Source: Candidatus Poribacteria bacterium (lineage in GTDB: Bacteria; Poribacteria; WGA-4E; WGA-3G). From it: a stretch of 41,873 bases of DNA. Where the stretch lies: contig JAGWBV010000013.1 in assembly GCA_021295715.1 (NCBI GenBank), forward strand, positions 54,918 through 96,790. Reading direction: 5' to 3'. The notes beneath the pieces were generated by a model. The model worked only from the letters and a program-made list of their open reading frames with translations. It did no database searches and was not told the DNA's origin. Below, piece by piece: positions 5,925 to 33,948 of the stretch (positions are counted from its first letter, which is position 1; every line of letters begins with the position of its first letter). Both the position numbers and the translations under genes were made by a program.

Positions 5925-7322
5925 ATGGAAACGCAAGCGCGAACCTCCTCAGTGATACAGGACCCCGGTGCAGTCCTCCTAATCTCCTGCTACGAACTCG
6001 GACACCGACCGATCGGGCTCTCTCGTCCGCTTCGTGCCCTTGAATCGGCAGGATTCGCTCCAGAGGTAATTGATATTGCTGTCGAACCACTGGATATCGA
6101 AAAGGTCGAGCGCGCACGTTTCATCGGTATCTCCGTCCCGATGCATACTGCCTTGCGATTAGGGGTTCATCTCTTGCACCGGATACGAGAAATCAATTCG
6201 GATGCCTCTATTTGCATGTACGGACTCTACGCAACGCTTAACGCCGATTATCTGCTTTCACACGGTGTCGATTTTTGCATCGCGGGTACAGATCCAACGC
6301 AACTCATCGCGCTGGTGGAATCTCTGGCGAAAGAAGAACAGTCTGAGGAGCCGGCATTCGATTTCCTTGCGGAATTACAACCGCTGGAAACATACGCGCA
6401 TTTTGAGGACGAAGATGAGATCCGAACTGTCGGTTATACCGAGACGACACACGGGTGTAAGCACCTCTGTACGCATTGCCCGATTCCGCCAGTCTACAAC
6501 GGCAAGTTTCTCGCTGTGCGACGCGACATTGTACTCGCTGAAATACAGGAACAGGTCGTGGAAGGTGCGACACACATCACCTTTGGCGACCCAGATTTTC
6601 TCAACGGTCCAACGCACGGACTCCGCATTCTCCGCGCGATGCACGAGGCTTTTCCAAGCCTCACCTTCGACTTTACAACCAAGATCGAGCACATTCTGAA
6701 AAACAGAGAACACTTTTCAGAATTCGCGCACCTTGGATGCCGGTTCGTCATCTCCGCGGTTGAAACGCTAAACGAACAGGTGCTGACGATCTTAGAGAAG
6801 CATCACACGCACCCGGATGTAGCGGAAGCGGTTGACATCGTTCACGGAGCAGGCATCGCGTTGCGTCCGACATGGGTGCCGTTCACGCCGTGGACGACCT
6901 TAGATGATTACCTCGAAATCTTTGAGTTTATTGATACACATGGTCTTGTGTATCACGTAGATCCGGTGCAGTTCGCCGTTCGATTGTTAATCCCGCCCGG
7001 TTCATACCTGCTCAAGCGTTCCGAAACGAAAGAACTTTCACTCACACTTGACGAAGCCGCCTTTAGTTATACGTGGGCACACCCCGATGCTCGAATGGAC
7101 GAACTTCATAAAACGGTTAATGCCCTCGTTGAAAGCGACGCGCGAGCCGGTGTTGACGCGCTGAAGACCTTTTATCGGATATGGACACTCGCCGCCGATA
7201 TGCAAGGGCAGTCTCCACCAACACAGAGAAAAGAAGCGCATTTACCCGCGCCACGTCTCACCGAAGCATGGTTCTGCTGAGCAGAACCTACCGATGGGCA
7301 GTTTGCCCCAATGCATGTTTAG
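5925..7322 (+). CDS. CUAEP-tail radical SAM selenoprotein, with UGA at 7278 read as selenocysteine
   Basis: A B12-binding-type radical SAM enzyme. Residues 1-135 resemble a cobalamin-binding-like domain, and the radical SAM domain carries the iron-sulfur motif C178-x3-C182-x2-C185 (GCKHLCTHCPI), followed by THITFGDPDFLNGP. A simple reading ends at the UGA at 7278-7280, after RLTEAWFC. Reading it as selenocysteine gives Cys451-Sec452-Ala-Glu-Pro and 10 more residues to a TAG at 7320-7322, 465 residues in all. The C-U/C-A-E-P tail is the defining mark of the CUAEP/CCAEP-tail radical SAM family as I recall it. A SECIS-like hairpin follows the UGA. The reaction and substrate are not known. The next gene, DUF169, is a likely partner. 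The start at 5925 has no Shine-Dalgarno sequence. Confidence 0.85.
7270..7308 (+). promoter_or_regulatory. Candidate bacterial SECIS element and UGA-centred palindrome
   Basis: Downstream of the UGA (7278-7280) a 5-base-pair hairpin, GGGCA (7296-7300) with TGCCC (7304-7308), closes a 3-base loop GTT that begins with G. The loop lies 20 bases after the UGA. This fits the bacterial SECIS consensus as I recall it (small apical loop with an early G, roughly 16-37 bases from the UGA). In addition the UGA is the loop of a perfect 8-base-pair palindrome (GGTTCTGC at 7270-7277 and GCAGAACC at 7281-7288). The two stems do not overlap. Confidence 0.6.
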
Positions 7323-7446: not shown

Positions 7447-8133
7447 ATGTCAGAACAAATTCAACAATTGCTTAATTTGGAAACAGTCCCTGTTGCCGTA
7501 ACATTTCACGATGCCCAACCAGATGGCGTTTCCCGTGTGGAAAAGGTTGAAGCCTCCGGTTGCACCTATTGGCGACGCGCAGCAGAAGGCAAAACTTTCT
7601 ATACGGAAGCCTCCGACCATTACAACTGTCCGATCGGGTGCTATACACACAACGTTGAGTTACCCCCTAAGCAAATGGAGGAACTCGAAAACACGCTCGG
7701 ACTGATGGGCGAACTCGGCTACATCGCTATGGAAGAAGTCCCCGGTATCCCAAAACGGGAAACGCCTTTCAAAAGTGCGGTCTATGCCCCGCTATCAGAT
7801 GCGACTGACACGCCTGATGTCGTCATCATCTCTGGCACGCCAAGACAGATGATGCTTTTGGCGGAAGCCGCAACCGCTGCGGGTATTGGTACAGAAGATA
7901 GCATCATGGGACGCCCGACGTGTGCAGCGGTTCCTGCTGTCATACAAGGCGGACGGAGTGTAAGTAGTTTGGGGTGTATCGGCAACCGCGTCTACACTGC
8001 TCTCTCTGACGACGACTTCTATTTCGCCTTTCCCGGCAAACACATCGACGCGCTCATTGAAAAGTTGGAAACGATTGTGAACGCGAATCAAGCGTTAGAG
8101 GAATATCATCAGCAACGCCAATCAGATTTTTAA
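7447..8133 (+). CDS. DUF169 family protein
   Basis: A 228-residue soluble protein matching the DUF169 (COG2043) pattern: an N-terminal VPVAVTF-like segment, the conserved cysteine block HYNCPIGCYTHNV at about residues 58-70, and GCIGNR near residue 180. No enzymatic activity is established for this family as far as I know. It follows the CUAEP-tail radical SAM gene in the same direction by 124 bases, which suggests a shared pathway. I recall the two families occurring together but cannot confirm it here. Its ribosome-binding site (AAGGAAAATTAAAAAT then ATG) is supplied by the recurrent leader motif. Confidence 0.82.
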   Translation: MSEQIQQLLNLETVPVAVTFHDAQPDGVSRVEKVEASGCTYWRRAAEGKTFYTEASDHYNCPIGCYTHNVELPPKQMEELENTLGLMGELGYIAMEEVPGIPKRETPFKSAVYAPLSDATDTPDVVIISGTPRQMMLLAEAATAAGIGTEDSIMGRPTCAAVPAVIQGGRSVSSLGCIGNRVYTALSDDDFYFAFPGKHIDALIEKLETIVNANQALEEYHQQRQSDF

Positions 8134-15627: not shown

Positions 15628-16962
15628 TTACAACGGCAATACTGGGACATCTTTCATGAAATCATTCGTCTCAGTTTGCCACATTTTCATATCCGCAGCG
15701 AGCGATCGAATACGGTCATCATGTTCAGGCAGATCGGCAAGGTTTGTCGTCTCCCAAGGATCCTGCTCTAAATCGAAAAGTTGGATGCAATTCGTGCCAG
15801 CACCCGTCTCTTCAGAGACATAGTAACGAATCAATTTCCAACGTCCATCACTGATTGTGCGGTGAATATCTCTATACGCCGCGAAGACTGTAGCCCGCAC
15901 CCGTTCTACATGACCCTTCATCAATGGCACTAAACTGCACCCTTCAGTCGTATCTGGACAGGCAACATCGGTGAGATCGCAGACAGTGGGAAACACATCA
16001 TATAGATAGGTTAGCGCATCAACCGTTTCTCCTTCAGGGATCCCCGGTCCAGCAAATATGGAAGGCACGTGGATGCTATGGTTATAGAGATTCTGTTTCC
16101 CCAACAGCCCGTGTTGCCCGACGGCGAGTCCGTGATCAGCAGTGTAGATGATGATTGTGTTGTCAAGGTGTCCGGTTGCTTCCAATGTGCTTAGCACGCG
16201 TCCCATTTCGGCATCCATGTGCGTAATCATCCCGTAATAGTCGGCGATGTGTTGTTGAACGACTTCTGGCGTGCGGGGGAAGGGTGCCAACACTTCGTCC
16301 CGAATGCGCATTTCACCGTTGTCGAACGGATGTTCAGGGAGGAAATTTTCGGGGACAGGTATATCCTCTGGTGGATACATCGTCGCGTATTCTCCCGGTG
16401 CTGTTCTCGGGTCGTGCGGTGAAGTAAAGGAGAGATAAAGAAAAAATGGATCCGTTTCATCGTAACTTTCTATAAATTGCACAGCGGCATCTGTAAACAG
16501 TTCCGTAGAAAACTTTTCTCCTATGTACTTGGCATCATCAGGGTATTTTCCTGTTGGATCGAAATCGAAGACGGGTACTTTATATTGATCGCTCATTCCA
16601 CCAAAGAAAATCTTGGCACCGGCATCGAAACTGTCGGTAAACGTTTGGCGGTCATTGTGCCATTTGCCAGAAAAAAATGTGTGATACCCTGACTCGCGCA
16701 TTACCTGTGGCCACACTGCCAAGTCTCGGTTAATCTGGTTTCCACCGCTACGGAAAAGATTCGCACTCGTGAGGACAGCGGCTCGGCTTGGCACACAGAC
16801 GGCTCCGACAAGCGATCCCATAATGTGAGTTTGTCGGAAATTTGTTCCGCGTGCTATGAGTGAATCCATCGTTGGTGTATGGACGGTTGGGTCGCCCATG
16901 CCACGAATGGCGTCCCATCGATGGTCGTCGGCGATCATAAAAAGAACGTTGGGTCGTGACAT
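15628..16962 (-). CDS. Sulfatase (type I, formylglycine-dependent)
   Basis: A 444-residue sulfatase of the alkaline phosphatase superfamily. The N-terminal metal-binding ADDH is at 11-14. The maturation motif C56-V-P-S-R60 is intact, so Cys56 would be converted to formylglycine. SGKWH and TADHG (binding the second metal side) are present. No obvious signal peptide is seen, so a cytoplasmic location is likely, or export by an unrecognised route. It most resembles iduronate-2-sulfatase/choline-sulfatase-like members; the substrate is uncertain. The start carries the leader motif AAGGAAAATTAAAAAT. An anaerobic-type or FGE maturase would be needed and is not in the window. Confidence 0.92.
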   Translation of the reverse strand: MSRPNVLFMIADDHRWDAIRGMGDPTVHTPTMDSLIARGTNFRQTHIMGSLVGAVCVPSRAAVLTSANLFRSGGNQINRDLAVWPQVMRESGYHTFFSGKWHNDRQTFTDSFDAGAKIFFGGMSDQYKVPVFDFDPTGKYPDDAKYIGEKFSTELFTDAAVQFIESYDETDPFFLYLSFTSPHDPRTAPGEYATMYPPEDIPVPENFLPEHPFDNGEMRIRDEVLAPFPRTPEVVQQHIADYYGMITHMDAEMGRVLSTLEATGHLDNTIIIYTADHGLAVGQHGLLGKQNLYNHSIHVPSIFAGPGIPEGETVDALTYLYDVFPTVCDLTDVACPDTTEGCSLVPLMKGHVERVRATVFAAYRDIHRTISDGRWKLIRYYVSEETGAGTNCIQLFDLEQDPWETTNLADLPEHDDRIRSLAADMKMWQTETNDFMKDVPVLPL

Positions 16963-19632: not shown

Positions 19633-22600
19633 TTATAATCGGTTGTAACCGTAGCCTTTACCTGTAATTTCAAAGAGTGCTGCTGCCGCTTGGAAGTGAA
19701 TCTCAGCGTCTTGGTCTTGGAGAATCAATTCAAGCAGCGTCACTGCTTTCGCATTTTTAGCTTCTCCAAGTGCCTTGATAGCATCAAGCCGGAAACCTCT
19801 CGTAATTTGCGCCTCATGGAGTGCCGTTAGTTTTTCCACTAACGCTGTTACCGCCTTGTCCGTCGCGATTTTCCCCAACGCCCGCGATGCGTCACGTCGA
19901 ATCTCGACGTGGTTTTCATCGTTGTTCATCACTTCGATAAGCGCGTCGGTCGTTGTTTCATCAGCCAACTCACCGAGTCCCTGCGTTGCGGCTCGGCGGA
20001 CATCCTTTTCGACTTCGTTTTCACCTTTCATTATCTGAATGAGTTCCGGTATGAGTTCGCTCATCCCGGCTTGTCCAACGCTCAGTGCTGTGGCTTTCCG
20101 AGTGTCCACATCTGGATCAACTAACCGCTGTTTGAGTTGCGAAGTGTCCAAAGTGACATCAGCTGTTTTGCATCTACCTAATGCAACCATTGCAGCATTT
20201 CTGACTTGGTGATTTTCCCATTCATCCTCAGCACGGGCTAACATTTTGGGGGCAACGTATGCCGGTAAGTCTAATTTTTTGGCAGCGTTGACGAAGACTT
20301 CCCAACTCCAATTCCGTTTCAGATCATCAGCGCCGATGGCTTTTCTGTTTGCGGCATCTTCAAGTGCAACGATATATTCGGTATTGTCAACAAGCCGTTC
20401 CGCTATTGCTTCTGCGGCACGCGCGCCTCCAATTTCACCAAGTGCTGTTGCGGCTTTTGTCCGAGAAGAAGCCTTAGCCAACGCGTCGGTACTCGCGTCC
20501 AAGGCGATTCGCTTGTCTTCCAAGATAGCGATTAATTTCGGAATCGCTGCTTCACTTTTAAGTTTGCCCAAAGCAACGACAGCATTCTTTGAGATATTTC
20601 CGATCCGGACATCTAACGCGCGAATCAGGACGGCTTCAGCTGCCATGTTACCGATATTGCCGAGTGCCGCCACGGCAGCATTACGGACAGCATCCGGCTC
20701 TAACGGGTCTTCCACGATCTTGCTAAGTCGTGCAATCGCTTCGGCATCCTTGAGATTTCCCAAAGCAGCAGCGGCTCGCCATCGGATCTCGGCATTTTCA
20801 TCGGAAAGTGCGGTGAGCAGCGACGCGGCCGCACGTTCATCTTTAAGCGCGCCAAGCGAGACCACCGCCGCCGCACGAACGGACTTCATCTCATCCATAT
20901 TTTCGAGAACAGCGATCAATGGTTCAACGACGCGGCGTTCTTTGAACCCACCGAGCGATTCTGCGGCACGCCTGCGAACGACATAACTCGGATGTTTCAG
21001 TTCTTCGACCATTGCATCTACGGCAACTTTTTTCGCAGACGCTCCGATCACATGAACAAGTGCCCAGCGGACCCACTCATCATCCGCAGATTTCAGAGCC
21101 TCAAGGGCGAATTCGGCTGTTGGAATGTTGTTATCTTTGATTAATGCGCCAATTACTTCGTCTTGAACAGATTGGACTTCGTATCCATCATCAAAACTCC
21201 CCAATCCCTTCTGGACGATATCAACAAGCCCCTTATCCCCAGCTTGAATCTCTCGGAGTGCTACTGCGGCTTGGAAGCGGGTTGTTTCATACTTATCGTT
21301 TTTCAGCACATCTACCAGCGGATCAACAACCTTTTGACCTTTTATTTTCCCGAGTGCGATCGCTGCTTCTTGTCGGACAGCCCCCTGTTTATCCTTTTTC
21401 AACGCAGTAACCAGTGGCGGGATGGCATTATCACCTTTGACTTCACCGAGTGCCCATGCTGCGCTTTGTCGCACGGTTGCGCGTCCATCGTCCCGAAGTG
21501 CGTTTGCCAGAGACTCTACGACAGTGTCCCCTTTGAGGATACCGAGTGCTCGAGCGACCTCACTCCGAACAAGACTTGGAATGGGTTTGAGTTCACCCCA
21601 CGTCCGATAGTTTGCGCGTGGATAATCAGGGGTCCATTGAATCTGAAAGGAGTCAACCTGTGTTCGAAGTGTGTCCAGTGTTTTGTATTCCCGTTTCATG
21701 TGCCGTTGAAAATCTGAAATTTCGTCATATTGTGTGGAAAGGACCCAGAGTAACACAGGAATCGTTTCAGGGGCTTGGATTCGGCTCAACACCTTGACAG
21801 CATTCGCGCGTAGGGTCGGACTGGTCTCGTCACTGAACATCAGAAGTAGCATGGATTGTGTTGCTTCTTGAGGCTTGAGCCGCCAGAGGGCGGTAAGCGC
21901 GGCAATGCGTAAGGTCTCACGCATATTTTTGTCCATCGCGATGAGAACCAATTTTTGAACGGCATCCTCTGTGGATACATCGATTTTTCCGAGTGCCTCT
22001 GCCGCATTTGTTGCAGTGGTATCGTCATAGGAGAGGGCGTTCGTGAGAGCAAGGACTGCCCTGTTATTCTCACCACGGGCCCGCATATTACCAAGTCCGA
22101 CCGCTGCGAATGCCTTTACCTCTTTATATGGATCACTATCCAATGCTTCAATGAGCGGAACGACTGCACGCCGGTCCCCGATTTGTCCGAGAGCGTCTGC
22201 GACCTTCACGCGGATTTCGTCTGTGCCGTTTTTAAGAGCGTCGATCATCGGTAGCACAGCAACGCCGCGCATTTCGACGAGTGCTGCCAACGCTGCATCT
22301 TGCAAATCCTCGTTTCCCAATTCGTTTATAAGCGGCTCTACGCCATCTCCTGATTTGAGCAATCCGAGTGCTTGGATCGCGGCTGATAAGGTTCCGATCC
22401 TATATTTTTTCATCCATAAACTATCAATATAAGCACTCGCGATGTACCGGTATTCTGTGGCAAAGCCGATGTCCTCATCGGGAATGAGGCTTCGCGCGCC
22501 GGTGTCCAACACCTCAAGTAGTGGGGCAACGGCGGGTTCTCCTATACGATTCAGCGCATCTATGGCGGTATCTTTGACGTAACTGTTGGGATCCGCGAGA

Positions 22601-23490
22601 AGTCGGACAAGGTCAGACACGGTTGTTTCCGCTTGGAGGCTCCCGAGGAGTTTCGCGGCGTGCATTCGGACCTGCGCGCTGTTGTTTCTGAGGGCAAGTT
22701 GGAGTCCCGGCACAATGGCTGCACTCTCAGCAGCTGAACCCATTGATTGCTCAAGCGCGACAATCGCTCTATAGGCAACTTCAGGTGCGTTTTTCGCATC
22801 CGCAAGAACTTCTTCAAAAATTGGGATGAGTTCCGGGTTTCGCATTGCCCCGAGATAACGAACGGCCTCTTTTTGTATGGCTGTATCCTTATGGTGCATC
22901 GCCTGCCGCAAAAGTTCAACAACCGCATCTCCATCTCCGAGTTTTGTCATGAGTTCCGAGACCGCTGCGAGCGCGTTCGGTTGATAGCATTTCTCTGCGG
23001 CTAAAAGCCCTATAACGACAGCAGCATCCGAATGTCCTACGAGTTCAGAGAGCAATTCTGGACGTTTTTCGACCGCTTCAGCAAGCGACACAGCGAAGAG
23101 TCCAGAGATAGCGTTCTGCGAACGGACAAGTCTCTCTTGTCGATCCAATTCATCAGAATCCGGATCCTCCTGCAACGCGATAGTAAGGATGTCTGCCGCG
23201 AGCGTTTCAAGATAAGCGTTCGATTGCGCAATGGCTTGGTGCCAACCTTCTGTCTCAGCGCGCGTTCGGTTTTGCAGGAAAGCCTTGAGATGTCGGGCCT
23301 CCTGATTTCCAGCCTCTGTCCTCTGGACCGCCGTTTGTGCAGCAGCATAATCTCCGCGAAGAATAGCGGCTCGCGCTTCAATAATGTCCCTATTCTCTTT
23401 CTCACCACACCCTATCACGAGGACAATAGCCACAATGAGTGAGCAATGGATATAGACTTTCAATATCTTACATAAAAGGTGATGCTTCAT
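19633..23490 (-). CDS. Giant HEAT/PBS-lyase-repeat lipoprotein
   Basis: A 1285-residue protein. The N-terminus has a signal peptide ending in a good lipobox, V-I-G-C28, so it should be a lipid-anchored envelope protein. Nearly all the rest is tandem 30-35-residue helical repeats of the HEAT type, with recurring A-V-x-P-L-I-x-A-L and A-A-x-A-L-G-x-I/L-x-D/G units, interrupted around residues 330-360 and 590-640 by less regular segments. Such solenoids bind proteins; no catalytic motif is seen. The start carries the leader motif, and the gene lies downstream of the GlyRS gene on the same strand, 206 bases away. Confidence 0.88.
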   Translation of the reverse strand: MKHHLLCKILKVYIHCSLIVAIVLVIGCGEKENRDIIEARAAILRGDYAAAQTAVQRTEAGNQEARHLKAFLQNRTRAETEGWHQAIAQSNAYLETLAADILTIALQEDPDSDELDRQERLVRSQNAISGLFAVSLAEAVEKRPELLSELVGHSDAAVVIGLLAAEKCYQPNALAAVSELMTKLGDGDAVVELLRQAMHHKDTAIQKEAVRYLGAMRNPELIPIFEEVLADAKNAPEVAYRAIVALEQSMGSAAESAAIVPGLQLALRNNSAQVRMHAAKLLGSLQAETTVSDLVRLLADPNSYVKDTAIDALNRIGEPAVAPLLEVLDTGARSLIPDEDIGFATEYRYIASAYIDSLWMKKYRIGTLSAAIQALGLLKSGDGVEPLINELGNEDLQDAALAALVEMRGVAVLPMIDALKNGTDEIRVKVADALGQIGDRRAVVPLIEALDSDPYKEVKAFAAVGLGNMRARGENNRAVLALTNALSYDDTTATNAAEALGKIDVSTEDAVQKLVLIAMDKNMRETLRIAALTALWRLKPQEATQSMLLLMFSDETSPTLRANAVKVLSRIQAPETIPVLLWVLSTQYDEISDFQRHMKREYKTLDTLRTQVDSFQIQWTPDYPRANYRTWGELKPIPSLVRSEVARALGILKGDTVVESLANALRDDGRATVRQSAAWALGEVKGDNAIPPLVTALKKDKQGAVRQEAAIALGKIKGQKVVDPLVDVLKNDKYETTRFQAAVALREIQAGDKGLVDIVQKGLGSFDDGYEVQSVQDEVIGALIKDNNIPTAEFALEALKSADDEWVRWALVHVIGASAKKVAVDAMVEELKHPSYVVRRRAAESLGGFKERRVVEPLIAVLENMDEMKSVRAAAVVSLGALKDERAAASLLTALSDENAEIRWRAAAALGNLKDAEAIARLSKIVEDPLEPDAVRNAAVAALGNIGNMAAEAVLIRALDVRIGNISKNAVVALGKLKSEAAIPKLIAILEDKRIALDASTDALAKASSRTKAATALGEIGGARAAEAIAERLVDNTEYIVALEDAANRKAIGADDLKRNWSWEVFVNAAKKLDLPAYVAPKMLARAEDEWENHQVRNAAMVALGRCKTADVTLDTSQLKQRLVDPDVDTRKATALSVGQAGMSELIPELIQIMKGENEVEKDVRRAATQGLGELADETTTDALIEVMNNDENHVEIRRDASRALGKIATDKAVTALVEKLTALHEAQITRGFRLDAIKALGEAKNAKAVTLLELILQDQDAEIHFQAAAALFEITGKGYGYNRL

Positions 23491-23696: not shown

Positions 23697-26600
23697 TTAA
23701 TTTCCAGCAATTACGAGTTTCGTCAGGTCCGCGACAGCGTAGATATTCCGTCCGATCTGGTTCAATAATGCCAATCGATTCGCGCGCAGTGTTGGCTCCT
23801 CCGCCATAACCAAAACATCGTCAAAAAATGTGTCTATTGCGGGTTGTAAAGCAGCGAGTTGCGTCAGCAGTTTCGCGTAATCGCGTTCCTGAATGCTTTG
23901 CTGGAAACCGAGTTCTGCTTCGGTGATACAGGCAAACAACTGCTTCTCAGCATTGTCGTGCAGGAGCGCGGCATCTACAGTTTCTGGCGCGTCCGGCGGT
24001 AAAATTCTCAGTACCCGATTGAGTGCATTATACACTTCCTCAAAATTTGGTGTCAAGCGAAATTCGGCAAGCGTGCTGGCGCGTTTGAGAATATCAATGA
24101 TGTCAACGGCACCAACCGCCAAGACAGCATCGGCGAGATCTGGCGCATATTGATGGGTCTGTAGCAAAATAACGCGTAGGCGTTCTTTGATGAAGTTAAG
24201 GACACTCGTTCGTGTATCATCGGCTAATTCAACGGTATAGAGGGAGATCACTTTATCAACAACGATATCTAAAGACAACAGCAGCCCCCGATCTCGGAGG
24301 ATTCGGATTGTGCCAAGGGCATGGCGTCTTAAGGAGTAAGGGTCTTGCGAACCTGTCGGACGTTCCTCTATACCGAAGTATCCGACAATCGTGTCAAGCT
24401 TATCGGCGATTGCAACAAGCGCACCGACTTCGGTTTCAGGTAGCGGCGTATCAGCACCGAGCGGTTGGTAATGCTCAGCAATAGCCGTTGCAATAGGTTC
24501 CGCTTCTCCACTGTTATGTGCGTAATATTTTCCGGTAATCCCCTGCAATGACGGGAATTCGATAACCATTTGCGTCGTCAAATCTGCTTTACAGAGCCAC
24601 GCTGCGCGTTCTGCATGACCGATGGTTGTTTCCGAGATTCGCAATTCTGTACCAATGAACTGAACTAACGCTTTAAGCCGATCGGCTTTATCCAAGAGTG
24701 AACCGAGCTTCGCGTGGAAGATAACCGCGCCTAAACGTTCAACCTTATCGGCGAGACTGGTTTTCTGGTCCTCGCTGTAGAAGAACTCTGCATCGTTGAG
24801 TCTGGCGTGAAGGACGCGCTCATTCCCGTGCCGAACGCCGTCAATATTGCCGTCCGTCCCGTTGGAAATCGTAATAAACTTCGCGGCGAGGACGGACTCA
24901 CTTTTCCACATCGGAAAATAGCGTTGATGCTTCTTCATCGCGGTAATCAGCACCTCAGACGGTATTTCCAAATGCGACTCACTAAAATTGCCGACGATCG
25001 GTTGCGGATTCTCCACGAGATAGTTCACCGTATCCAACAATTCTTCATCGAGTATTGGAAGGCATCCCTCAACCTCGAAAACGTCCCTCACCTGCTTCTC
25101 AATTGTGTTTCTGCGCTCCATCGGACAGACAACAACATCAACAGCTCGCAATTTTTCAATATACGTGTCTAAGTCGGCAGAAGTTAAAGTTATCGGTTCA
25201 GGATGCAAGGAACGATGCCCATAAGTTAACCGTCCTGCGTGTGCGGCACCGTAAGTGTAGTCAATAACTGCATCTCCGAGTAACGCCACGAGCCATCGAA
25301 TCGGACGCGCAAAGCGCGCGAACGCACGCGGTTCTTCGGAGTTGGTCTCCCAACGCATGGTTTTGGGAAAACGGAGTGCTTCGATCCATTCCGTTAACAG
25401 TGTTTGTAAGATCTCTTGTGTTGGGACTCCCGTTTCGAGTTTGGAGGCAGCGACATATTCGCCTCGTTCCGTTTCAACAATGCGGAGTGCTGTCAAGTCA
25501 ACACCCTGTGTTTTTGCGAAACCGATTGCGGCTTTTGTTGGTTCGCCGTTTTCATCGTAGGCGATACGTCTTGGGGGTCCCACGACCTCTGTCTCTTGGC
25601 TTTCCTGAAGCGTCTTCACGTCCTTGATACTGAGCGTGATACGGCGCGGTGTGCCGAGCGTTTGAACTTCGCCAAACGGGATTCTGTGGTTCGTAAGGGA
25701 TTCAGTGGCGATCTCACGTAGTTGTTCAAGGACAGGTGGAACATAACTCGCAGGTATCTCTTCCGTCCCGATTTCAAATAGGAGGTCAGCGGTGTCTTGT
25801 TCTTTGTCAGATTCAGTGCGGTTAGAAACCGCACCTACCGCGGTGGAGGTTGTCTCTGTGTTAAAACGTCCTATGAGGGGGTGTTCCATCTCTTCACGCT
25901 GTTTGACATACGCGCGCGCTATCCGCTGTGCAAGTCGTCGGACGCGCTCAATGTAACTCACCCGCTCTGTGACACTGATGACCCCACGTGCGTCCAACAT
26001 GTTGAAGGTATGCGAGCATTTCAAGACATGATCGGTTGCCGGTAGCACTAACCCCGCATCTAAGCACGCGTGGGTCTCTTTCTCATAGGTGCTAAATAAC
26101 TCAAAAAGCATGTCTACATCCGCACGCTCAAAGTTGTAGATCGAGTACTCCACCTCACTCTGGCGGTGGACATCACCGTAATTAAGATGTTCGTTCCAAC
26201 GGATGTCAAAAAAATTATCAACATCCTGTAAGTAGAGTGCGATGCGCTCAAGTCCGTAGGTAATCTCAGCACATATTGGATCGAGATCAATGCTCCCCAT
26301 CTGTTGGAAGTAAGTAAACTGTGTGACCTCTGCGCCGTTCCACCAGACCTCCCAGCCGAGTCCAGAGGCACCGAGCGTCGGTGATTCCCAATCGTCTTCC
26401 ACAAATCGGATGTCGTTCTTTTGGGGTGAAATGCCAAGACTATAAAGGCTCTCAAGGTAGAGCGGAAGCACATTCTCAGGCGCTGGTTTGAGTATCACCT
26501 GATATTGGTAATATGCCCCGAGACGGAAAGGATTTTCTGCGTATCTGCCGTCAGTCGGACGGCGCACAGGCTCTACATACGCCACTCGCCACGGCTCTGG

Positions 26601-26732
26601 ACCGAGACATCGCAAAAATGTTGCGGCGTTAAATGTGCCTGCGCCGACCTCTATATCGCAGGGTTGCTGGATGATGCACCCGTGATCTGCCCAAAATTTC
26701 TCTAACGCTAAAATTATTTCTTGAAGAGTCAT
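23697..26732 (-). CDS. glyQS: Glycyl-tRNA synthetase, fused alpha and beta subunits
   Basis: A 1011-residue enzyme that charges tRNA-Gly. Residues 1-287 are the alpha (catalytic) subunit, with [34 protein letters not shown] and [12 protein letters not shown] intact. Residues from about 317 are the beta subunit, starting [15 protein letters not shown]. Most bacteria of this type encode the two as separate glyQ and glyS genes; fusion is known in Chlamydiae and some others. The linker (288-316) contains an in-frame palindromic repeat. The ATG at 26732 matches the GlyQ start; a GTG at 26750 is less likely. A promoter is seen at 26782-26811. Confidence 0.95.
25816..25834. repeat. Palindromic repeat inside the GlyRS linker
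   Basis: GTGCGGTT (25816-25823), loop AGA, AACCGCAC (25827-25834): a perfect 8-base-pair palindrome within coding sequence. On the coding strand it is preceded by GGTA and encodes residues 299-306 (V-G-A-V-S-N-R-T) in the linker between the alpha and beta parts. It has the same layout as the intergenic hairpins. Confidence 0.65.
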
Positions 26733-27319
26733 ATCTGTTTTTCTTAGCACGCTCCGTTTGGATTGATTAATTCAAGTAGTTATTGTATCACAATAGATAT
26801 TTTTAATTCAACGGATTTTCAGCGCGTTAGGACATTTGGTTGTCTGAATCGGGGTTGTCACAGATGACATGGATTACGCGAATTGTTGCGTCGATGAAAC
26901 TACGGAGAAGTGAGTGTTTTCAGAGTATTCAGAGTAAAATGGGAAAAATTGGGACAGGTAAAACAGCCAAGAACCAACGCTACCCATGCTGCTATGGCGT
27001 TTCAGAGCAAAATGCTACTCTGAAAAGAATAGTTGGATTTCAGAGTTGGACGGTAGGAAATGATTACCCGAAGGAGTTCATTGACGTTATGTTTAATCTA
27101 TAATAACACAATTATATTTTGTAAATTATGAATGTTATAAATATACCGACACTATGGGCTTTTCAATTGGGGTATTATTTTCTACAAAGATGCTGAAGAA
27201 ACACCCAAGCAAATAAACCCTACGGGACTAAAGAGGAATTTTTTAAGTAATAACGAGGCTTCTGCAAAGGGGATAAGTTATGAAATTGATAGGTTACGAA
27301 ATTTATACGTACTACACTA
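26733..27319. other. Intergenic region with no convincing gene
   Basis: The longest gene-free stretch (587 bases). Near its left end is the GlyRS promoter. Around 26915-27050 are several TTCAGAGTA-type units and a perfect 8-base-pair hairpin, TTTCAGAG (27000-27007) and CTCTGAAA (27018-27025). A segment at 27194-27213 repeats one near 23555. An 87-codon open frame at 26840-27103 has no recognisable features and no ribosome-binding site. Confidence 0.6.
26782..26811 (-). promoter_or_regulatory. Promoter for glycyl-tRNA synthetase
   Basis: On the minus strand: TTGAAT (26806-26811), 18-base spacer, TACAAT (26782-26787) preceded by TGA. The leader would be about 45 bases. Confidence 0.45.
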
Positions 27320-27681: not shown

Positions 27682-29082
27682 TCATTTTAAAAGCGACCAA
27701 TCGGGTTCGTCTTCTGGGTCGCCGAGGGGACCGTGGGCGTTACGCACAATACGACGTTGTAGGTCGTACCAATCCGTGTAACTCGTCGCGGGCTGGAGTT
27801 TGTCGTTCCGAGCATCCATCAGGTTTGTAAGGGTGTTCTCCATTTCGTCGGCTAACGATCTCGCTTCGGGTGTGTCAATCAGATTGTTCATCTGAAGCGG
27901 GTCCGCCGCCACGTCATACAGCATCCGTTTACCATTCAGCCAGCGTGCATAACTATGCGTTTTTGTGCGGATGCCGCGCCACTCGTTACCATCAATGAGG
28001 TAATCGTAGGTCGATCCGAAGTTCATCGTCAAAACGGCATCCTGTTCAAAGGCATTAGTTTCAGCACACCAGGAGGCGGATAAGTCGTAGCCTTCAACGG
28101 TTCGGGGAGGTTGAATGCCACATAACCCACAAAGCGATGGAAACAGATCAACGGGGGAGGTAAGTGTGTCACAGGTTCGATTTCCCTCGAAAACACCGGG
28201 CAGACGCATCATCAGTGGCACCTTGATGGATTCTTCGTAAGGCTCCCGCTTCGCCCAGAAATTAATGCCCTGTCCGCCGCCCTGCGTTCCATGGTCGGAT
28301 CCGAAGACGAGCAGTGTGTTTTCGACACGTCCCGTTCTTTCAAGATACGCCATCAGTTCGCCGAGCATATCGTCGACCGTTAGCGTCATGGCGAGATAAT
28401 GCCGATAAATTTCTAACGATTGTTCTTTGAGCGAATCGGGAACATTTTCCGGGAGTTGGAGTTCTGTAGGTAGTCGGTCATAGTATTCCTGCGGTGCAAA
28501 TTCGTAAGGTGTAGAGTGTGCTTGATGTGGAGAGATAAACAGACAGAACGGCGTATCGTCTTCCATATCATCCATGAACTGGAAGGCGTATCGGTTCAGC
28601 GCATCGGTTTCGTAGCCTTCCCATCTTTCGTTCCGCCAATCGTCAAGGTTCACCGTTCCATTGAAATAGTCGGTGTGGAAGTTGTAGCCGCGCCAGTGTT
28701 GGAATCCGAGACGATCACGTCCTTCGGGGACGTAATCACGTCCGCCGATTTCGGGGAATGAACCCGTGTGGAGATGCCATTTACCGACCCACGCCGTCCG
28801 ATAACCGTTTCTGCCGAAAACGTCACCGAGTCCGATTTCGTCGTGCCGGGTTCTGACGAAATTAATGAGATGCCCAGTTGTCTGTGGATGCCGTCCGGTG
28901 AGCATCATAGAACGGTAGGGGGTGCAGACGGGCGCGGTAGCGATTGCGTTTGAAAAAACGGTGCCTTCCTGCGCGAGTCGGTCGATGTGCGGTGTCTCGA
29001 TCTGCGTATCGCCATATACTGGCAACGAGCACGCACGGATCTGGTCAGCCAGGAGATAAACAATATTCGGTGTGTTTGTCAT
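27682..29082 (-). CDS. Sulfatase (type I, formylglycine-dependent)
   Basis: A 466-residue arylsulfatase-like protein. The N-terminal metal-binding LLADQ (D13) and the maturation site C53-T-P-Y-R57 are present; the fourth position is Tyr rather than the common Ser, a variant found in part of the family. The motifs TGRHPQTTGH, GKWHLH and GSDHGTQGG (metal and sulfate binding) follow. No signal peptide is evident. It is distinct from the sulfatase at 15628. The start at 29082 has no clear ribosome-binding site. Substrate unknown. Confidence 0.92.
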   Translation of the reverse strand: MTNTPNIVYLLADQIRACSLPVYGDTQIETPHIDRLAQEGTVFSNAIATAPVCTPYRSMMLTGRHPQTTGHLINFVRTRHDEIGLGDVFGRNGYRTAWVGKWHLHTGSFPEIGGRDYVPEGRDRLGFQHWRGYNFHTDYFNGTVNLDDWRNERWEGYETDALNRYAFQFMDDMEDDTPFCLFISPHQAHSTPYEFAPQEYYDRLPTELQLPENVPDSLKEQSLEIYRHYLAMTLTVDDMLGELMAYLERTGRVENTLLVFGSDHGTQGGGQGINFWAKREPYEESIKVPLMMRLPGVFEGNRTCDTLTSPVDLFPSLCGLCGIQPPRTVEGYDLSASWCAETNAFEQDAVLTMNFGSTYDYLIDGNEWRGIRTKTHSYARWLNGKRMLYDVAADPLQMNNLIDTPEARSLADEMENTLTNLMDARNDKLQPATSYTDWYDLQRRIVRNAHGPLGDPEDEPDWSLLK

Positions 29083-29895: not shown

Positions 29896-30960
29896 CTAAA
29901 ATTGGAGTCCCATACTCACTCGGTGTACCTGTTGTAGGCGTCCGAAGTCAGCGTAGGCATAATCGAGGGAAAGGACTCTCCTACCAAGGTTCAAATGGAT
30001 GCCCAAACCGAGTGTAAGCCCCTCTTCATCGTCCACGCGGTTTTCTCCCAATCGAAATTTGTAACCCCCACGAATTGCCGCCATTTTTCTGTACCAGTAC
30101 TCCATGCCGATGTTCACCCGCTCACTGTTGTCGTTGGGATGGTTGGCATCGAGTGCGAGGGTGAGGAGATTGCTACCAGAATCAACAATGTCATAGGCGA
30201 GTCCGAGTCGAAAATTGGACGGTAGCGGGAACTCAATCGTCTCTAATTCTGCTTTCCTTGCCGGATTCGTCGTGTCTGGAAACGGACGGTAACTCCCTAT
30301 CCTTGGGTCCCCTGCAACTTCTGCTCCGCTTTCCAAATCAGGACCGCCGAAGCGCATCTCCGGTCCAAAGTTCGAGAAACACATTCCGATCCGTAAACTC
30401 CGCCAGCCGGTATGGTACAAAGTGCCGACATCAATGGCAACACCTTTGGCACTCTCACGGTGGATCTGCTGATGGATGTATTTCGCATTAATACCGAAAG
30501 ATAATTTAACGCCGGATTCCTGTTCGTAAAGTTGTCGTGCATACGCCAAGGAGACGGCTGTATCCCATGCGGAATACCAGAGTCCTGTGCCATCAGGCTT
30601 CGCCAGCGTGGTAATCTCCGTATCAGGGACATTGAGGAATGTGACACTCGCGCCCAAGGTACCGATATTTTTTATCGGCGTTGCGAAGGCGAGATAGTTA
30701 TAACGGACATCGGCAAGCCAGACGGTATGTGTGTCCGAGAAACTGGTTTTTTCGAGTTGACTTATCCCAGCTGGGTTCCAGTAGATACTGGTTACGTCGT
30801 TAGCGAGTGCGCCAAACGCACCCCCAAGACTGTCTACCCGTGCGCCAGGACCGATCTTCAGAAACTGGGCACCCGCCGTGCCAACATTGGTTGTGGCATG
30901 ACTGGAAACAGCCAACAGTAAAAGAGGTATGAATAATAACTTATAAATTATACGTCGCAT
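29896..30960 (-). CDS. PorV/PorQ-family (UPF0164) outer-membrane protein
   Basis: A 354-residue predicted outer-membrane beta barrel. A signal peptide (RRIIYKLLFIPLLLLAVSSHA) precedes the family signature GTAGAQFLKIGPGARVDSLG and GGAFGALANDVTSIYWNPAG (about residues 27-66). The C-terminus ends in aromatic-rich alternating strands and a terminal F, as in barrel proteins. PorV delivers type IX secretion cargo to the surface in Bacteroidota. It directly follows (12-base gap, ribosome-binding site at the end of the previous gene) a protein with a T9SS-like tail, which supports a related role here. Confidence 0.85.
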   Translation of the reverse strand: MRRIIYKLLFIPLLLLAVSSHATTNVGTAGAQFLKIGPGARVDSLGGAFGALANDVTSIYWNPAGISQLEKTSFSDTHTVWLADVRYNYLAFATPIKNIGTLGASVTFLNVPDTEITTLAKPDGTGLWYSAWDTAVSLAYARQLYEQESGVKLSFGINAKYIHQQIHRESAKGVAIDVGTLYHTGWRSLRIGMCFSNFGPEMRFGGPDLESGAEVAGDPRIGSYRPFPDTTNPARKAELETIEFPLPSNFRLGLAYDIVDSGSNLLTLALDANHPNDNSERVNIGMEYWYRKMAAIRGGYKFRLGENRVDDEEGLTLGLGIHLNLGRRVLSLDYAYADFGRLQQVHRVSMGLQF

Positions 30961-30972
30961 GTATGTCTCCCG

Positions 30973-33948
30973 TTATCGGATAATAGCGAATCTGCCGATC
31001 TTGTTACCGACGACTTCATCACTCTCGTCTCTGGCTTCAACATGATAGATATAAACGCCACTTGCGAGTGCTTGATTGTAGCGATTGAGGAGTTCAAATG
31101 ACGCTGTTCCGCCCTTATCGCCTTGTGTCCGTTCACCCGGATTAAAAAGGGCAGTGCTCTCGTGTTCAAGGGTTCGGACTAATTCACCCGCTAACGTGTA
31201 AATCCGTATCGTACACCGTGGTGGCAGGTGTGTGAAGAAAATCTTGTCCGTTCCTTCGGAAAGGACGGCTCTATTTGTAACGAAATAAGGGTTTGGGACA
31301 ACCCGAATTTTTCCAAGATCGGCTTCAATATCTTCAGCTGAAAGGGACTCCCCTTTTGTATTCAGGAGAAATTGATCTCCATCCTGTGGTGCGCTAATAC
31401 CACCCATTTCAACAGTAAAGACATCTCCAGAGGAGATTTCGCCGTTCGGATCCTTTATAAAGACGTAGCCGCCTCGGATGTAAATACGGAAGAATCCTGG
31501 GGTCTCCGCTGGATTATATGTATCACGCCAACCCGTGGCTGTCAGGATCGCGTATCCAGCGGCGCGCTGGTCATTGAACTGAATTTCTTCACTTGTATTT
31601 TCGTCTACCACCTTGACGTGTGTATCATCAACAAACGTGATCGAATACGTATGTGGACGATAGTAGGTTGCCCAAAAGATGTTCGGCCAAGTGTTCTCAC
31701 CAAAGCCGGGGGATTGGATATCTACTGACCAATCTGTTACTGTGCCTGCCGTCAGTTTAACGTCGTTAATCGGATTTTCCATGGGCGTACCGTAGGATAC
31801 ATCAACCCCTGTTATTCTCAGAACAATACCGTCAAACATCGGTGAAAGGACTTCAACGGCTTCTTGATGTTCGGGGTCATACCAATCAAAGGATTGTAGT
31901 TCAACGACAGTCTGGTCGGTTGTCATATCGACGATTTCATAAGCGGGTGGCTGATATCCGGGACCGGTGATATATGCCGCGGGACCCGTTTGCTTTGCAC
32001 CGTACCAGACGATCTTGTATTGATGCCCCGTTACCTTGTTTGGTGCGAGCACCATCGGTTCAACGGTAACGGTTCCCTGTCCCTGCTGTTCTATATCGGC
32101 AGTAGGGCCTCGGTATCCTGCAGGCTGGGCGCGCGGAACAACGTGAACCATCGTCTCGATCTGGCTACTCTCCATCGAGATGAGTCCGGTTTTCGGGTTG
32201 CCTGTATCAAACGAGGTCACCGCATACGTGTATTCAAGTCCGTTGGTTAATCCAGCGTCGGTGTAGAAATTTTTGATACCCGCATCCTCACCGAGTGCCT
32301 GCGAAGGGGTCGAGACGACTTGGAAAATGTCGCCAGCGACAGGGGTTCCTGAAGGTCCGTCGGTAATTTTCACGTAGAGTCCACCAAAATACATTAGCGC
32401 GTCGGAACGATATGCCCCGTCCGGATACGGCTCAAATGTATTTGGATCTTTGATAATAGCGTATCCACCACCACTTGCTGGAAATTCCGGATTATACGCC
32501 ATAACTTCCCACAGCGTCGTGTTAACGACTTCAAAATCTGTGCTGGAGTTGAATTTGATTATGTAGATGGCGTTTTTAAAGAAATCGGCAAAGAAAGGTT
32601 CATCCCCCTCACTTTCAATGGTAGCATCCGACTGCTTACCGACATGCGAGACCGTAAAGAAATTACCGGTAGCACTCGGCTTGTCGAACTCCATCAGCAT
32701 TGTCCAGTCTTCAACTGGGTTACCGGTGGATTCATCATAAGAGACATCGCGCCGATACACCCGATATCCTTCAAAGATCTTCTCTGGATCGGTCACATCA
32801 ACATATTCTTCGATGCGCTTACCGACACCCGAATCAACCCAGCGCCCTTCGCTTTCCCAGACGAGTGTCACCTGTTTATCGGCAGGATAAACACTTACCA
32901 ATGGAGAAGGCGGCGGTGCCGGTGCGACGTAGGCATCGTCATATAACTTCTGTGCCCAGTCCGAAGAGGCTTGTAAACCCGCAAGTCCTTCACCGATTGC
33001 TACTGCAATGATGACGTTGAAAGACTCACCGGGAGCGAGGGACTCAACAGGTCCGTAGGATTGGATAAAACGTTGATCGTCGTAGTTAGCCGGAAGTGGT
33101 TCAACACCCGGGGTGCTGATAAGCGCGTACATCTCCGCATCCGTCGTTGGGTCGGTGGCGATTGTAATCCGTTTGTGTGCAGTGAAAGGGATTTTTGCCG
33201 CTGGATCCTCAGCATTCTCCCCCATATACGCATCCAATACCCGTAAGCCGATATACCCCGGCGCGGAGGCGTTGGAGAATCCGTAAGAGAGGTAACGGTT
33301 GGGGTGATCTACAGGATTGAGAGCATCCGGTGTTTGATCCAAGGCAACGAAGTCATCTGCGGAGTAACTCGCTGTCCCCGTTTCGTTACTGGAGATGTCT
33401 ACATCGTATCGGAACGCCATAAATACATCTTCAAGCGTGTCGCTACCGACATTTGTGACGTTATACTCGAGAATAAAGAAGTCGTAGAGCGGTGCGTAAC
33501 TCCATTGAAACCCGTTAACTTCAAGTTCTAAACCCAGAATCAAATCCTTATTTGCCTCGGGGTTTGTATCGGAGCATTTGAACATGATCGCTTGGTTTGT
33601 CGGCGTTCCTTTTGTCGTTACACCGGGTTTGTTTGAGATAACCTCTGGCACATCGTCAGTGGGCCAAATTTCGCTTTGCCTGCCATCCGACTCAGCAACG
33701 CCTACCTCACCGTTTTTCTTGGCACCGATCCAGATGTCTCCTTCATAGATGTAGGAGTCGTTTGTTCCTGCGGGCCACCAGCCTGACGGGTTCGCGGTAG
33801 GGTTACTCGGAAACCCAACGACTGCGGTATTATAGATAGCAGAGGTGAGGTTGCCCACATCCAATGCTTTCCAATCCACGTCTGCACTCGCCGATACCGC
33901 GACGAGTGCAAAAATTGTAGATATACATATAAATCGTAATAATTTCAT
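30973..33948 (-). CDS. Large secreted protein with FlgD/T9SS-like C-terminal domain
   Basis: A 991-residue exported protein. Residues 1-22 form a signal peptide ending SASA. The middle is a long beta-rich region with fibronectin-III-like stretches (for example VSVYPADKQVTLVWES near 350). The last 110 residues match the FlgD-Ig-like or type IX sorting domain: VVPNPY, then IRIYTLAGELVRTL, then ASGVYIYHVEA, ending GRFAIIR. It begins with the recurrent leader and is followed by the PorV-like gene in one operon, so it is likely a surface or secreted cargo. No enzymatic domain was recognised. Confidence 0.82.
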   Translation of the reverse strand: MKLLRFICISTIFALVAVSASADVDWKALDVGNLTSAIYNTAVVGFPSNPTANPSGWWPAGTNDSYIYEGDIWIGAKKNGEVGVAESDGRQSEIWPTDDVPEVISNKPGVTTKGTPTNQAIMFKCSDTNPEANKDLILGLELEVNGFQWSYAPLYDFFILEYNVTNVGSDTLEDVFMAFRYDVDISSNETGTASYSADDFVALDQTPDALNPVDHPNRYLSYGFSNASAPGYIGLRVLDAYMGENAEDPAAKIPFTAHKRITIATDPTTDAEMYALISTPGVEPLPANYDDQRFIQSYGPVESLAPGESFNVIIAVAIGEGLAGLQASSDWAQKLYDDAYVAPAPPPSPLVSVYPADKQVTLVWESEGRWVDSGVGKRIEEYVDVTDPEKIFEGYRVYRRDVSYDESTGNPVEDWTMLMEFDKPSATGNFFTVSHVGKQSDATIESEGDEPFFADFFKNAIYIIKFNSSTDFEVVNTTLWEVMAYNPEFPASGGGYAIIKDPNTFEPYPDGAYRSDALMYFGGLYVKITDGPSGTPVAGDIFQVVSTPSQALGEDAGIKNFYTDAGLTNGLEYTYAVTSFDTGNPKTGLISMESSQIETMVHVVPRAQPAGYRGPTADIEQQGQGTVTVEPMVLAPNKVTGHQYKIVWYGAKQTGPAAYITGPGYQPPAYEIVDMTTDQTVVELQSFDWYDPEHQEAVEVLSPMFDGIVLRITGVDVSYGTPMENPINDVKLTAGTVTDWSVDIQSPGFGENTWPNIFWATYYRPHTYSITFVDDTHVKVVDENTSEEIQFNDQRAAGYAILTATGWRDTYNPAETPGFFRIYIRGGYVFIKDPNGEISSGDVFTVEMGGISAPQDGDQFLLNTKGESLSAEDIEADLGKIRVVPNPYFVTNRAVLSEGTDKIFFTHLPPRCTIRIYTLAGELVRTLEHESTALFNPGERTQGDKGGTASFELLNRYNQALASGVYIYHVEARDESDEVVGNKIGRFAIIR

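What the first reader, a model, noticed from the sequence alone, without database searches (positions are those of the whole stretch)
5925..7322. A UGA stop that is probably selenocysteine: CUAEP-tail radical SAM selenoprotein
Seen: the radical SAM frame ends ...EAWFC-TGA, and the next codons read A-E-P-T-D and ten codons later TAG at 7320. Known (from memory of protein family naming): a radical SAM family is defined by a C-terminal C-U-A-E-P or C-C-A-E-P tail, with Cys replacing Sec in some members. Inference: UGA 7278 encodes Sec452, and any automatic annotation ends the protein 14 residues early. If right, the host has Sec machinery, and a redox-active Cys-Sec pair lies at the end of an enzyme of unknown reaction.
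Basis: partly seen in the sequence, partly recalled or inferred. Interest (0 to 1): 0.9.

Follow-up and report, generated by a model that had tools for sequence, protein, structure and literature searches.

The report
Selenocysteine-tailed CUAEP radical SAM enzyme
The "stop" codon near the end of this Poribacterial gene almost certainly encodes selenocysteine, so the gene makes a member of an already named but biochemically uncharacterised enzyme family, a sister of the enzyme that makes the arsenic antibiotic arsinothricin.

Summary
Confirmed. UGA 7278-7280 lies in frame in a radical SAM gene (5925-7322). The read-through protein scores 615 bits against NCBIfam NF040546, "CUAEP/CCAEP-tail radical SAM (seleno)protein" (cut-off 500). 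All 36 family members at or over the cut-off in 60 related genomes carry one in-frame TGA. Of 80 homologues from many phyla, 59 have TGA and 21 TGC/TGT at this codon, all within WFC[UC]AEP. A hairpin 19 nt downstream (GGGC-AGUUU-GCCC) fits the published bacterial SECIS rules. Its 4-bp core is complete in 58/59 TGA genes and 0/21 Cys genes. Outside Poribacteria, genomes with TGA forms nearly all have selA (18/20) and tRNA-Sec (18/19); Cys-form genomes rarely do (2/21, 4/21).

Caveat: this organism's own assembly has selB and a selenocysteine-type selD, but no selA, and its only tRNA-Sec is cut off in the T-loop. Nearly all congeners have both, so I favour an assembly gap; recent loss is not excluded.

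Function: the family is a sister of ArsL (arsinothricin synthase); both end in a Cys-Cys or Cys-Sec pair. Conserved neighbours are DUF169, an L-amino-acid-ligase-type ATP-grasp protein and Nfu. An ArsL-like reaction is my best guess (about 0.35). The selenoprotein reading is not new; the reaction is open.

The parts
5925..7322 (+). CDS of CUAEP-tail radical SAM selenoprotein, 465 aa with UGA read as Sec
   Evidence: translation with TGA=U; NF040546 615 bits against cut-off 500, residues 17-461 to profile 1-467 of 468; Pfam Radical_SAM 44.5 bits at 173-312
6456..6479 (+). C178-x3-C182-x2-C185, the radical SAM [4Fe-4S] cluster motif
   Evidence: read from the translation; all three Cys invariant in 41 homologues and aligned with ArsL
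7278..7280 (+). UGA read as Sec452, in the tail motif WFC-U-AEP
   Evidence: TGA in 59 and TGC/TGT in 21 of 80 homologues at this codon; TGA in 30 of 30 inspected family members of the same order
7296..7308 (+). bSECIS-type hairpin GGGC-AGUUU-GCCC, 19 nt after the UGA
   Evidence: core complete in 58/59 TGA genes and 0/21 Cys genes, AGUU loop 59/59; paired changes on both sides; fits published bSECIS rules (PMC13188914)
7270..7288 (+). perfect 8-bp hairpin GGUUCUGC-UGA-GCAGAACC with the UGA as its loop; probably a by-product of coding F-C-x-A-E-P
   Evidence: fold; also complete in 17 of 21 Cys genes, so not specific to Sec
7447..8133 (+). DUF169 (COG2043) gene, conserved downstream partner
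   Evidence: Pfam PF02596 109 bits; same-strand neighbour in 33 of 80 loci, 13 of them Planctomycetota or Nitrospirota

Best explanation
SHOWN by comparative sequence: the gene encodes a 465-residue radical SAM protein of family NF040546 whose codon 452 is UGA and is conserved as a Sec/Cys position. INFERRED with high confidence: UGA452 is read as selenocysteine by the bacterial SelA/SelB/SelC/SelD route, with SelB and Sec-tRNA recruited by a small hairpin 19 nt downstream, inside the coding region. INFERRED with moderate confidence: the enzyme binds one [4Fe-4S] cluster at C178/C182/C185 and cleaves SAM reductively; its N-terminal domain has a cobalamin-domain-like fold but lacks the D-x-H-x-x-G cobalamin motif. 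SPECULATIVE (about 0.35): as in its sister ArsL, a C-terminal soft-ligand pair (Cys-Sec here, Cys-Cys in ArsL) holds or reduces a thiophilic substrate, and a SAM-derived fragment, perhaps 3-amino-3-carboxypropyl as proposed for ArsL, is transferred to it. The product would be an unusual amino acid, which in many phyla is passed to an L-amino-acid-ligase-type ATP-grasp enzyme encoded next door.
For: NF040546 at 615 bits, cut-off 500. One in-frame TGA in all 36 family members at or over the cut-off in 60 related genomes, tail conserved in 30/30 inspected. 59 TGA and 21 Cys codons in 80 homologues, motif invariant in 41 aligned. Hairpin core 58/59 against 0/21, Fisher p 2e-18 without correction for kinship; random synonymous codons would form it in about 20% of cases for the TGA peptides and 4% for the Cys peptides. 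Compensatory changes in helix 2. About four Sec/Cys switches on the tree, with the hairpin following in every independent pair. selA in 18/20 TGA genomes and 2/21 Cys genomes outside Poribacteria; tRNA-Sec in 18/19 and 4/21. Own selB 349.6 bits; own selD 359.5 bits with an in-frame TGA at VKCAG-U. Model pLDDT 90.4, nearest solved fold AprD4 (Z 23.6), then OxsB. Second-best family ArsL at 323 bits, third at 36. ArsL ends KRCCLKC with its CC aligned to C451-U452. ATP-grasp/LAL_C2 neighbour in 22 loci, DUF169 in 33, Nfu in 9. An ATP-grasp gene also lies near an RCCLKC-tail gene on an Alicyclobacillus plasmid.
Against: No selA over cut-off in this assembly. Its tRNA-Sec gene matches relatives up to GGTTCG and then lacks the 3' end; no second copy was found. 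Only 1 of the 4 Sec/Cys switches sits on well-supported branches, so the kinship-corrected test has no power. For the reaction: no arsenic genes were seen among the conserved neighbours, the ArsL score is below that family's cut-off, and Nfu and SUF-type neighbours point to an Fe-S or sulfur role instead.
Confidence: 0.85

Rival explanations
1. The Sec trait is being lost in this one organism: selA is gone and tRNA-Sec is broken, so UGA 7278 now acts as a stop and the enzyme is made 14 residues short, although relatives still insert Sec.
For: selA absent from the assembly at protein and DNA level; tRNA-Sec truncated in the T-loop inside a 43-kb contig, not at a contig end; no other copy of its 3' end.
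Against: The assembly is a 175-contig draft, 96% complete. selB, Sec-type selD, the tail codons and the hairpin are all intact with no sign of decay. A relative whose protein is 92% identical (L086, chromosome OX639992.1) has the TGA form; G010, a one-contig genome of the same genus with the same tail (L039), has an intact tRNA-Sec and selA.
Confidence: 0.1
2. UGA is an ordinary stop and the conserved tail downstream is kept for occasional read-through or another reason, without selenium.
Against: Cys replaces the codon in 21 homologues, the complete hairpin is present only with TGA, and Sec machinery co-occurs.
Confidence: 0.02
3. The Sec reading is right, but the enzyme serves Fe-S or sulfur metabolism (for example thiolation or cluster repair) rather than an ArsL-like amino acid synthesis.
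For: An Nfu-type scaffold gene directly downstream in 9 loci of several phyla; in Ignavibacteriales (L149) the gene lies a little after a sufB-type gene and a class V aminotransferase (SufS-type) gene. Fold neighbours include MiaB and RimO.
Against: ArsL is the nearest characterised family by a wide margin (323 bits against 36 for the next); the L-amino-acid-ligase-type ATP-grasp partner suggests an amino acid product.
Confidence: 0.25

Closest known systems
NCBIfam NF040546 rSAM_CUAEP (CUAEP/CCAEP-tail radical SAM (seleno)protein)
   Same: Full-length match over the curated cut-off, including the C-U-A-E-P tail; the family name already states the Sec/Cys alternation.
   Different: Nothing essential; this is a Poribacterial member. 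Neighbours, bSECIS and machinery co-occurrence were worked out here; I found no paper that names the family.
ArsL, arsinothricin biosynthesis radical SAM protein (NF040542, RCCLKC tail)
   Same: Sister family: 35-37% identity, same C-x3-C-x2-C, same domain order, Cys-Cys pair at the end where this protein has Cys-Sec.
   Different: Score below the ArsL cut-off, tail motif differs, no Sec in the two examples read; the annotated arsL seen sits among ars genes, while no ars gene is among this family's conserved neighbours.
AprD4 and other B12-fold radical SAM enzymes (6fd2, OxsB 5ul3)
   Same: Same two-domain fold (Z 22-24, about 390-400 residues aligned).
   Different: 17-18% identity; no D-x-H-x-x-G cobalamin motif here, and no Cys-Sec tail described for them as far as I know.
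Radical SAM selenoproteins listed in the 2026 review (TIGR04167; TrsS, NF045646)
   Same: Radical SAM proteins with predicted Sec.
   Different: Neither family was among the matches of this protein up to E 0.001. The review's text does not name NF040546 or CUAEP.

Membership tests
NF040546 CUAEP/CCAEP-tail radical SAM (seleno)protein | whole-protein score over the curated cut-off (500 bits) | tested here: met
   615 bits, E 8e-185
NF040546 CUAEP/CCAEP-tail radical SAM (seleno)protein | C-terminal C-[UC]-A-E-P tail | tested here: met
   FC-UGA-AEP; invariant in 41 homologues
NF040546 CUAEP/CCAEP-tail radical SAM (seleno)protein | radical SAM domain with C-x3-C-x2-C | tested here: met
   C178, C182, C185; Pfam Radical_SAM 44.5 bits
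Bacterial selenoprotein gene | bSECIS: 3-9 nt loop, stem of 4 bp or more, G in the first two loop positions, 16-37 nt from UGA | tested here: met
   4-bp GGGC/GCCC stem, loop AGUUU, 19 nt spacing; rules from PMC13188914
Bacterial selenoprotein gene | bSECIS minimum free energy at or below -7.5 kcal/mol | tested here: inconclusive
   -8.1 for the 42 nt after UGA, -7.0 for a 21-nt cut, -6.2 for the bare hairpin
Bacterial selenoprotein gene | Cys homologues at the UGA position | tested here: met
   21 of 80 homologues
Bacterial selenoprotein gene | complete selA, selB, selC and selD in the host genome | tested here: inconclusive
   selB and selD present; selA not found; tRNA-Sec truncated in a draft assembly; both present in nearly all congeners
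Bacterial selenoprotein gene | Sec detected in the protein | not testable with these tools
   needs mass spectrometry or 75Se labelling
ArsL (NF040542) | score over the curated cut-off (450 bits) | tested here: not met
   323 bits
ArsL (NF040542) | RCCLKC tail | tested here: not met
   tail is WFCUAEPTDGQFAPMHV; only the CC/CU pair aligns
ArsL (NF040542) | transfer of the 3-amino-3-carboxypropyl group to As(III) | not testable with these tools
Cobalamin-dependent radical SAM enzymes | D-x-H-x-x-G cobalamin motif in the N-terminal domain | tested here: not met
   no D-x-H in residues 1-150 of the translation; Pfam B12-binding 31.3 bits, just under its cut-off of 32.1

The most novel reading that the evidence does not exclude
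The enzyme is a selenium-dependent counterpart of ArsL: its Cys-Sec tail captures a metalloid (arsenite, selenide or similar), a SAM-derived radical fragment is joined to it, and an ATP-grasp ligase makes a peptide of the product. This would be an unrecognised selenoenzyme route to metalloid amino acids spread over several phyla.
Probability: 0.2. Interest if true: 0.85.

Novelty: new member of a known kind. Interest (0 to 1): 0.4.

Why it matters
Standard gene calling ends this protein at UGA and drops the Cys-Sec tail, which is the most conserved part of its end; the Thermomicrobium roseum copy in the plasmid collection is cut exactly there. The natural split into Sec and Cys forms, with the complete hairpin present only in the first, gives a clean test of the bSECIS rules in phyla without model organisms. 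The sister relation to ArsL and the linked ATP-grasp ligase give concrete substrates to try on an enzyme family of unknown reaction.

Tried and rejected
Rfam on the window at gathering scores: no match, and no tRNA in the window. The striking 8-bp hairpin with UGA in its loop looked like a new recoding element, but 17 of 21 Cys genes form it too, so it probably follows from the F-C-x-A-E-P codons. Free energy alone separates Sec from Cys genes poorly. Solved-structure search by sequence found only weak MiaB hits. An intact second tRNA-Sec was sought and not found. The kinship-corrected test of hairpin against Sec has too few independent pairs to reach significance. Rooting with ArsL leaves the base of the tree unresolved, so the direction of the Sec/Cys switches is open. 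Papers naming CUAEP or RCCLKC: none in the library.

Full report
OBSERVATION. The frame starting at ATG 5925 is open to TGA 7278-7280 (451 aa) and, read through, continues AEPTDGQFAPMHV to TAG 7320-7322. Read with Sec it is a 465-residue protein.

FAMILY. The read-through protein matches NCBIfam NF040546, "CUAEP/CCAEP-tail radical SAM (seleno)protein", at 615 bits against a cut-off of 500 and over nearly the whole profile. Pfam finds a Radical_SAM domain and a just-sub-threshold B12-binding fold. The window lies in a draft genome of 5.1 Mb in 175 contigs. Its closest named homologues are Candidatus Poribacteria, so the organism is very probably a Poribacterium.

IS THE UGA A SEC CODON? Four lines agree. 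(a) Among 60 related genomes every family member at or over the cut-off (36 hits) has exactly one in-frame TGA. All 30 inspected have it at the same codon within WFC-U-AEP. (b) In a scan of 84,980 species, 433 stretches encode relatives; of the best 80, 59 have TGA and 21 have TGC or TGT at this codon, always in WFC[UC]AEP. (c) A hairpin follows, GGGC-AGUUU-GCCC at 7296-7308, 19 nt after the UGA. It meets the published bSECIS rules on loop size, stem length, G in the first two loop positions and spacing (PMC13188914); the energy rule is borderline. The four core pairs are complete in 58 of 59 TGA genes and in none of 21 Cys genes, and the AGUU loop is in 59 of 59. Random synonymous codons would form the core in about 20% of cases for the TGA peptides and 4% for the Cys peptides. 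In 17 Poribacterial sequences the stem shows changes on both sides that keep pairing. (d) Outside Poribacteria, TGA-form genomes have selA in 18 of 20 and tRNA-Sec in 18 of 19, whereas Cys-form genomes have them in 2 of 21 and 4 of 21. The tree asks for about four Sec/Cys switches. In every independent pair the hairpin goes with TGA, but there are too few pairs for a kinship-corrected test.

THE HOST'S OWN SEC MACHINERY. selB is present (349.6 bits), and selD is present with its own in-frame TGA at the catalytic position, VKCAG-U. A tRNA-Sec gene lies directly downstream of selB and matches the relatives' genes through GGTTCG in the T-arm. It then lacks the 3' end, so it scores 39.5 bits against a cut-off of 47. 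The missing piece was not found elsewhere. No selA was found by profile or by DNA. Yet 43 of 50 relatives have selA and 54 of 60 have a tRNA-Sec over the cut-off. The assembly is 96% complete, and selB, selD, the tail and the hairpin show no decay. I therefore favour an assembly gap or error, and keep recent loss of the Sec trait as a rival at about 0.1.

A FALSE LEAD. The UGA sits in the 3-nt loop of a perfect 8-bp hairpin (7270-7288). It looked like a special recoding element, but 17 of 21 Cys genes form it fully, so it is probably a by-product of coding F-C-x-A-E-P.

WHAT THE ENZYME MIGHT DO. By sequence the nearest characterised family is ArsL, at 323 bits, with the next family at 36. ArsL is proposed to transfer the 3-amino-3-carboxypropyl group of SAM to As(III) (PMC8552651). 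Two ArsL-family sequences taken from plasmids end KRCCLKC, and the alignment puts their CC on C451-U452. The predicted fold (mean pLDDT 90.4) is closest to AprD4 and other B12-fold radical SAM enzymes, but the D-x-H-x-x-G cobalamin motif is absent. Conserved neighbours, nearly all on the same strand, are a DUF169 gene in 33 of 80 loci (here at 7447-8133), an ATP-grasp protein with an L-amino-acid-ligase C-terminal domain in 22 loci of other phyla, and an Nfu-type Fe-S scaffold in 9. An ATP-grasp gene also lies near an RCCLKC-tail gene on an Alicyclobacillus plasmid. My guess is an ArsL-like synthesis of an unusual amino acid in which the Cys-Sec pair binds or reduces a thiophilic substrate (about 0.35). 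An Fe-S or sulfur role, suggested by Nfu and by a SUF-type setting in Ignavibacteriales, is the main rival (about 0.25). No conserved arsenic gene was seen near this family.

NOVELTY. NCBIfam already names the family as a selenoprotein, so the central claim is not new. The 2026 review of prokaryotic selenoproteins lists other radical SAM selenoproteins but does not contain the terms NF040546 or CUAEP, and no paper in the library holds the term CUAEP. The reaction remains unknown.

Noticed in passing
G000:C54:31679-31784 (L002 1501-1606), outside the window: The genome's only tRNA-Sec gene, next to selB, matches relatives up to GGTTCG and then lacks the T-arm 3' half and acceptor 3' end; selA is also absent from the assembly. 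Assembly error or real loss of the Sec trait.
   Followed up: partly
G000:C29:59245-60168 (L019 1501-2424): The host's selD is itself a selenoprotein gene (VKCAG-UGA), followed by a bSECIS-like GCUC-CGGGU-GAGC hairpin about 16 nt downstream (read by eye).
   Followed up: partly
L166:5950-7386 (Thermomicrobium roseum plasmid NC_011961.1): The annotated CUAEP/CCAEP-tail CDS stops at a TGA that is followed in frame by AEP and a strong GGACCC-GUC-GGGUCC hairpin: the annotation very probably drops the Sec tail.
   Followed up: partly
window 7447-8133: DUF169 (COG2043), of unknown function, is a conserved same-strand neighbour of this radical SAM family across Poribacteria, Planctomycetota and Nitrospirota.
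   Followed up: partly
window 23697-26750 (-): Glycyl-tRNA synthetase alpha and beta subunits fused in one 1017-aa chain with a DALR anticodon domain.
   Followed up: no
window 19633-23490 (-): A 1285-aa protein built mostly of HEAT repeats (12 HEAT_2 stretches).
   Followed up: no
window 30973-33948 (-): A 991-aa protein without any Pfam match, next to a UPF0164/PorV-like protein (29896-30960).
   Followed up: no
window 15628-16962 (-) and 27682-29082 (-): Two sulfatase genes with N-sulphoglucosamine-sulphohydrolase-type C-termini.
   Followed up: no
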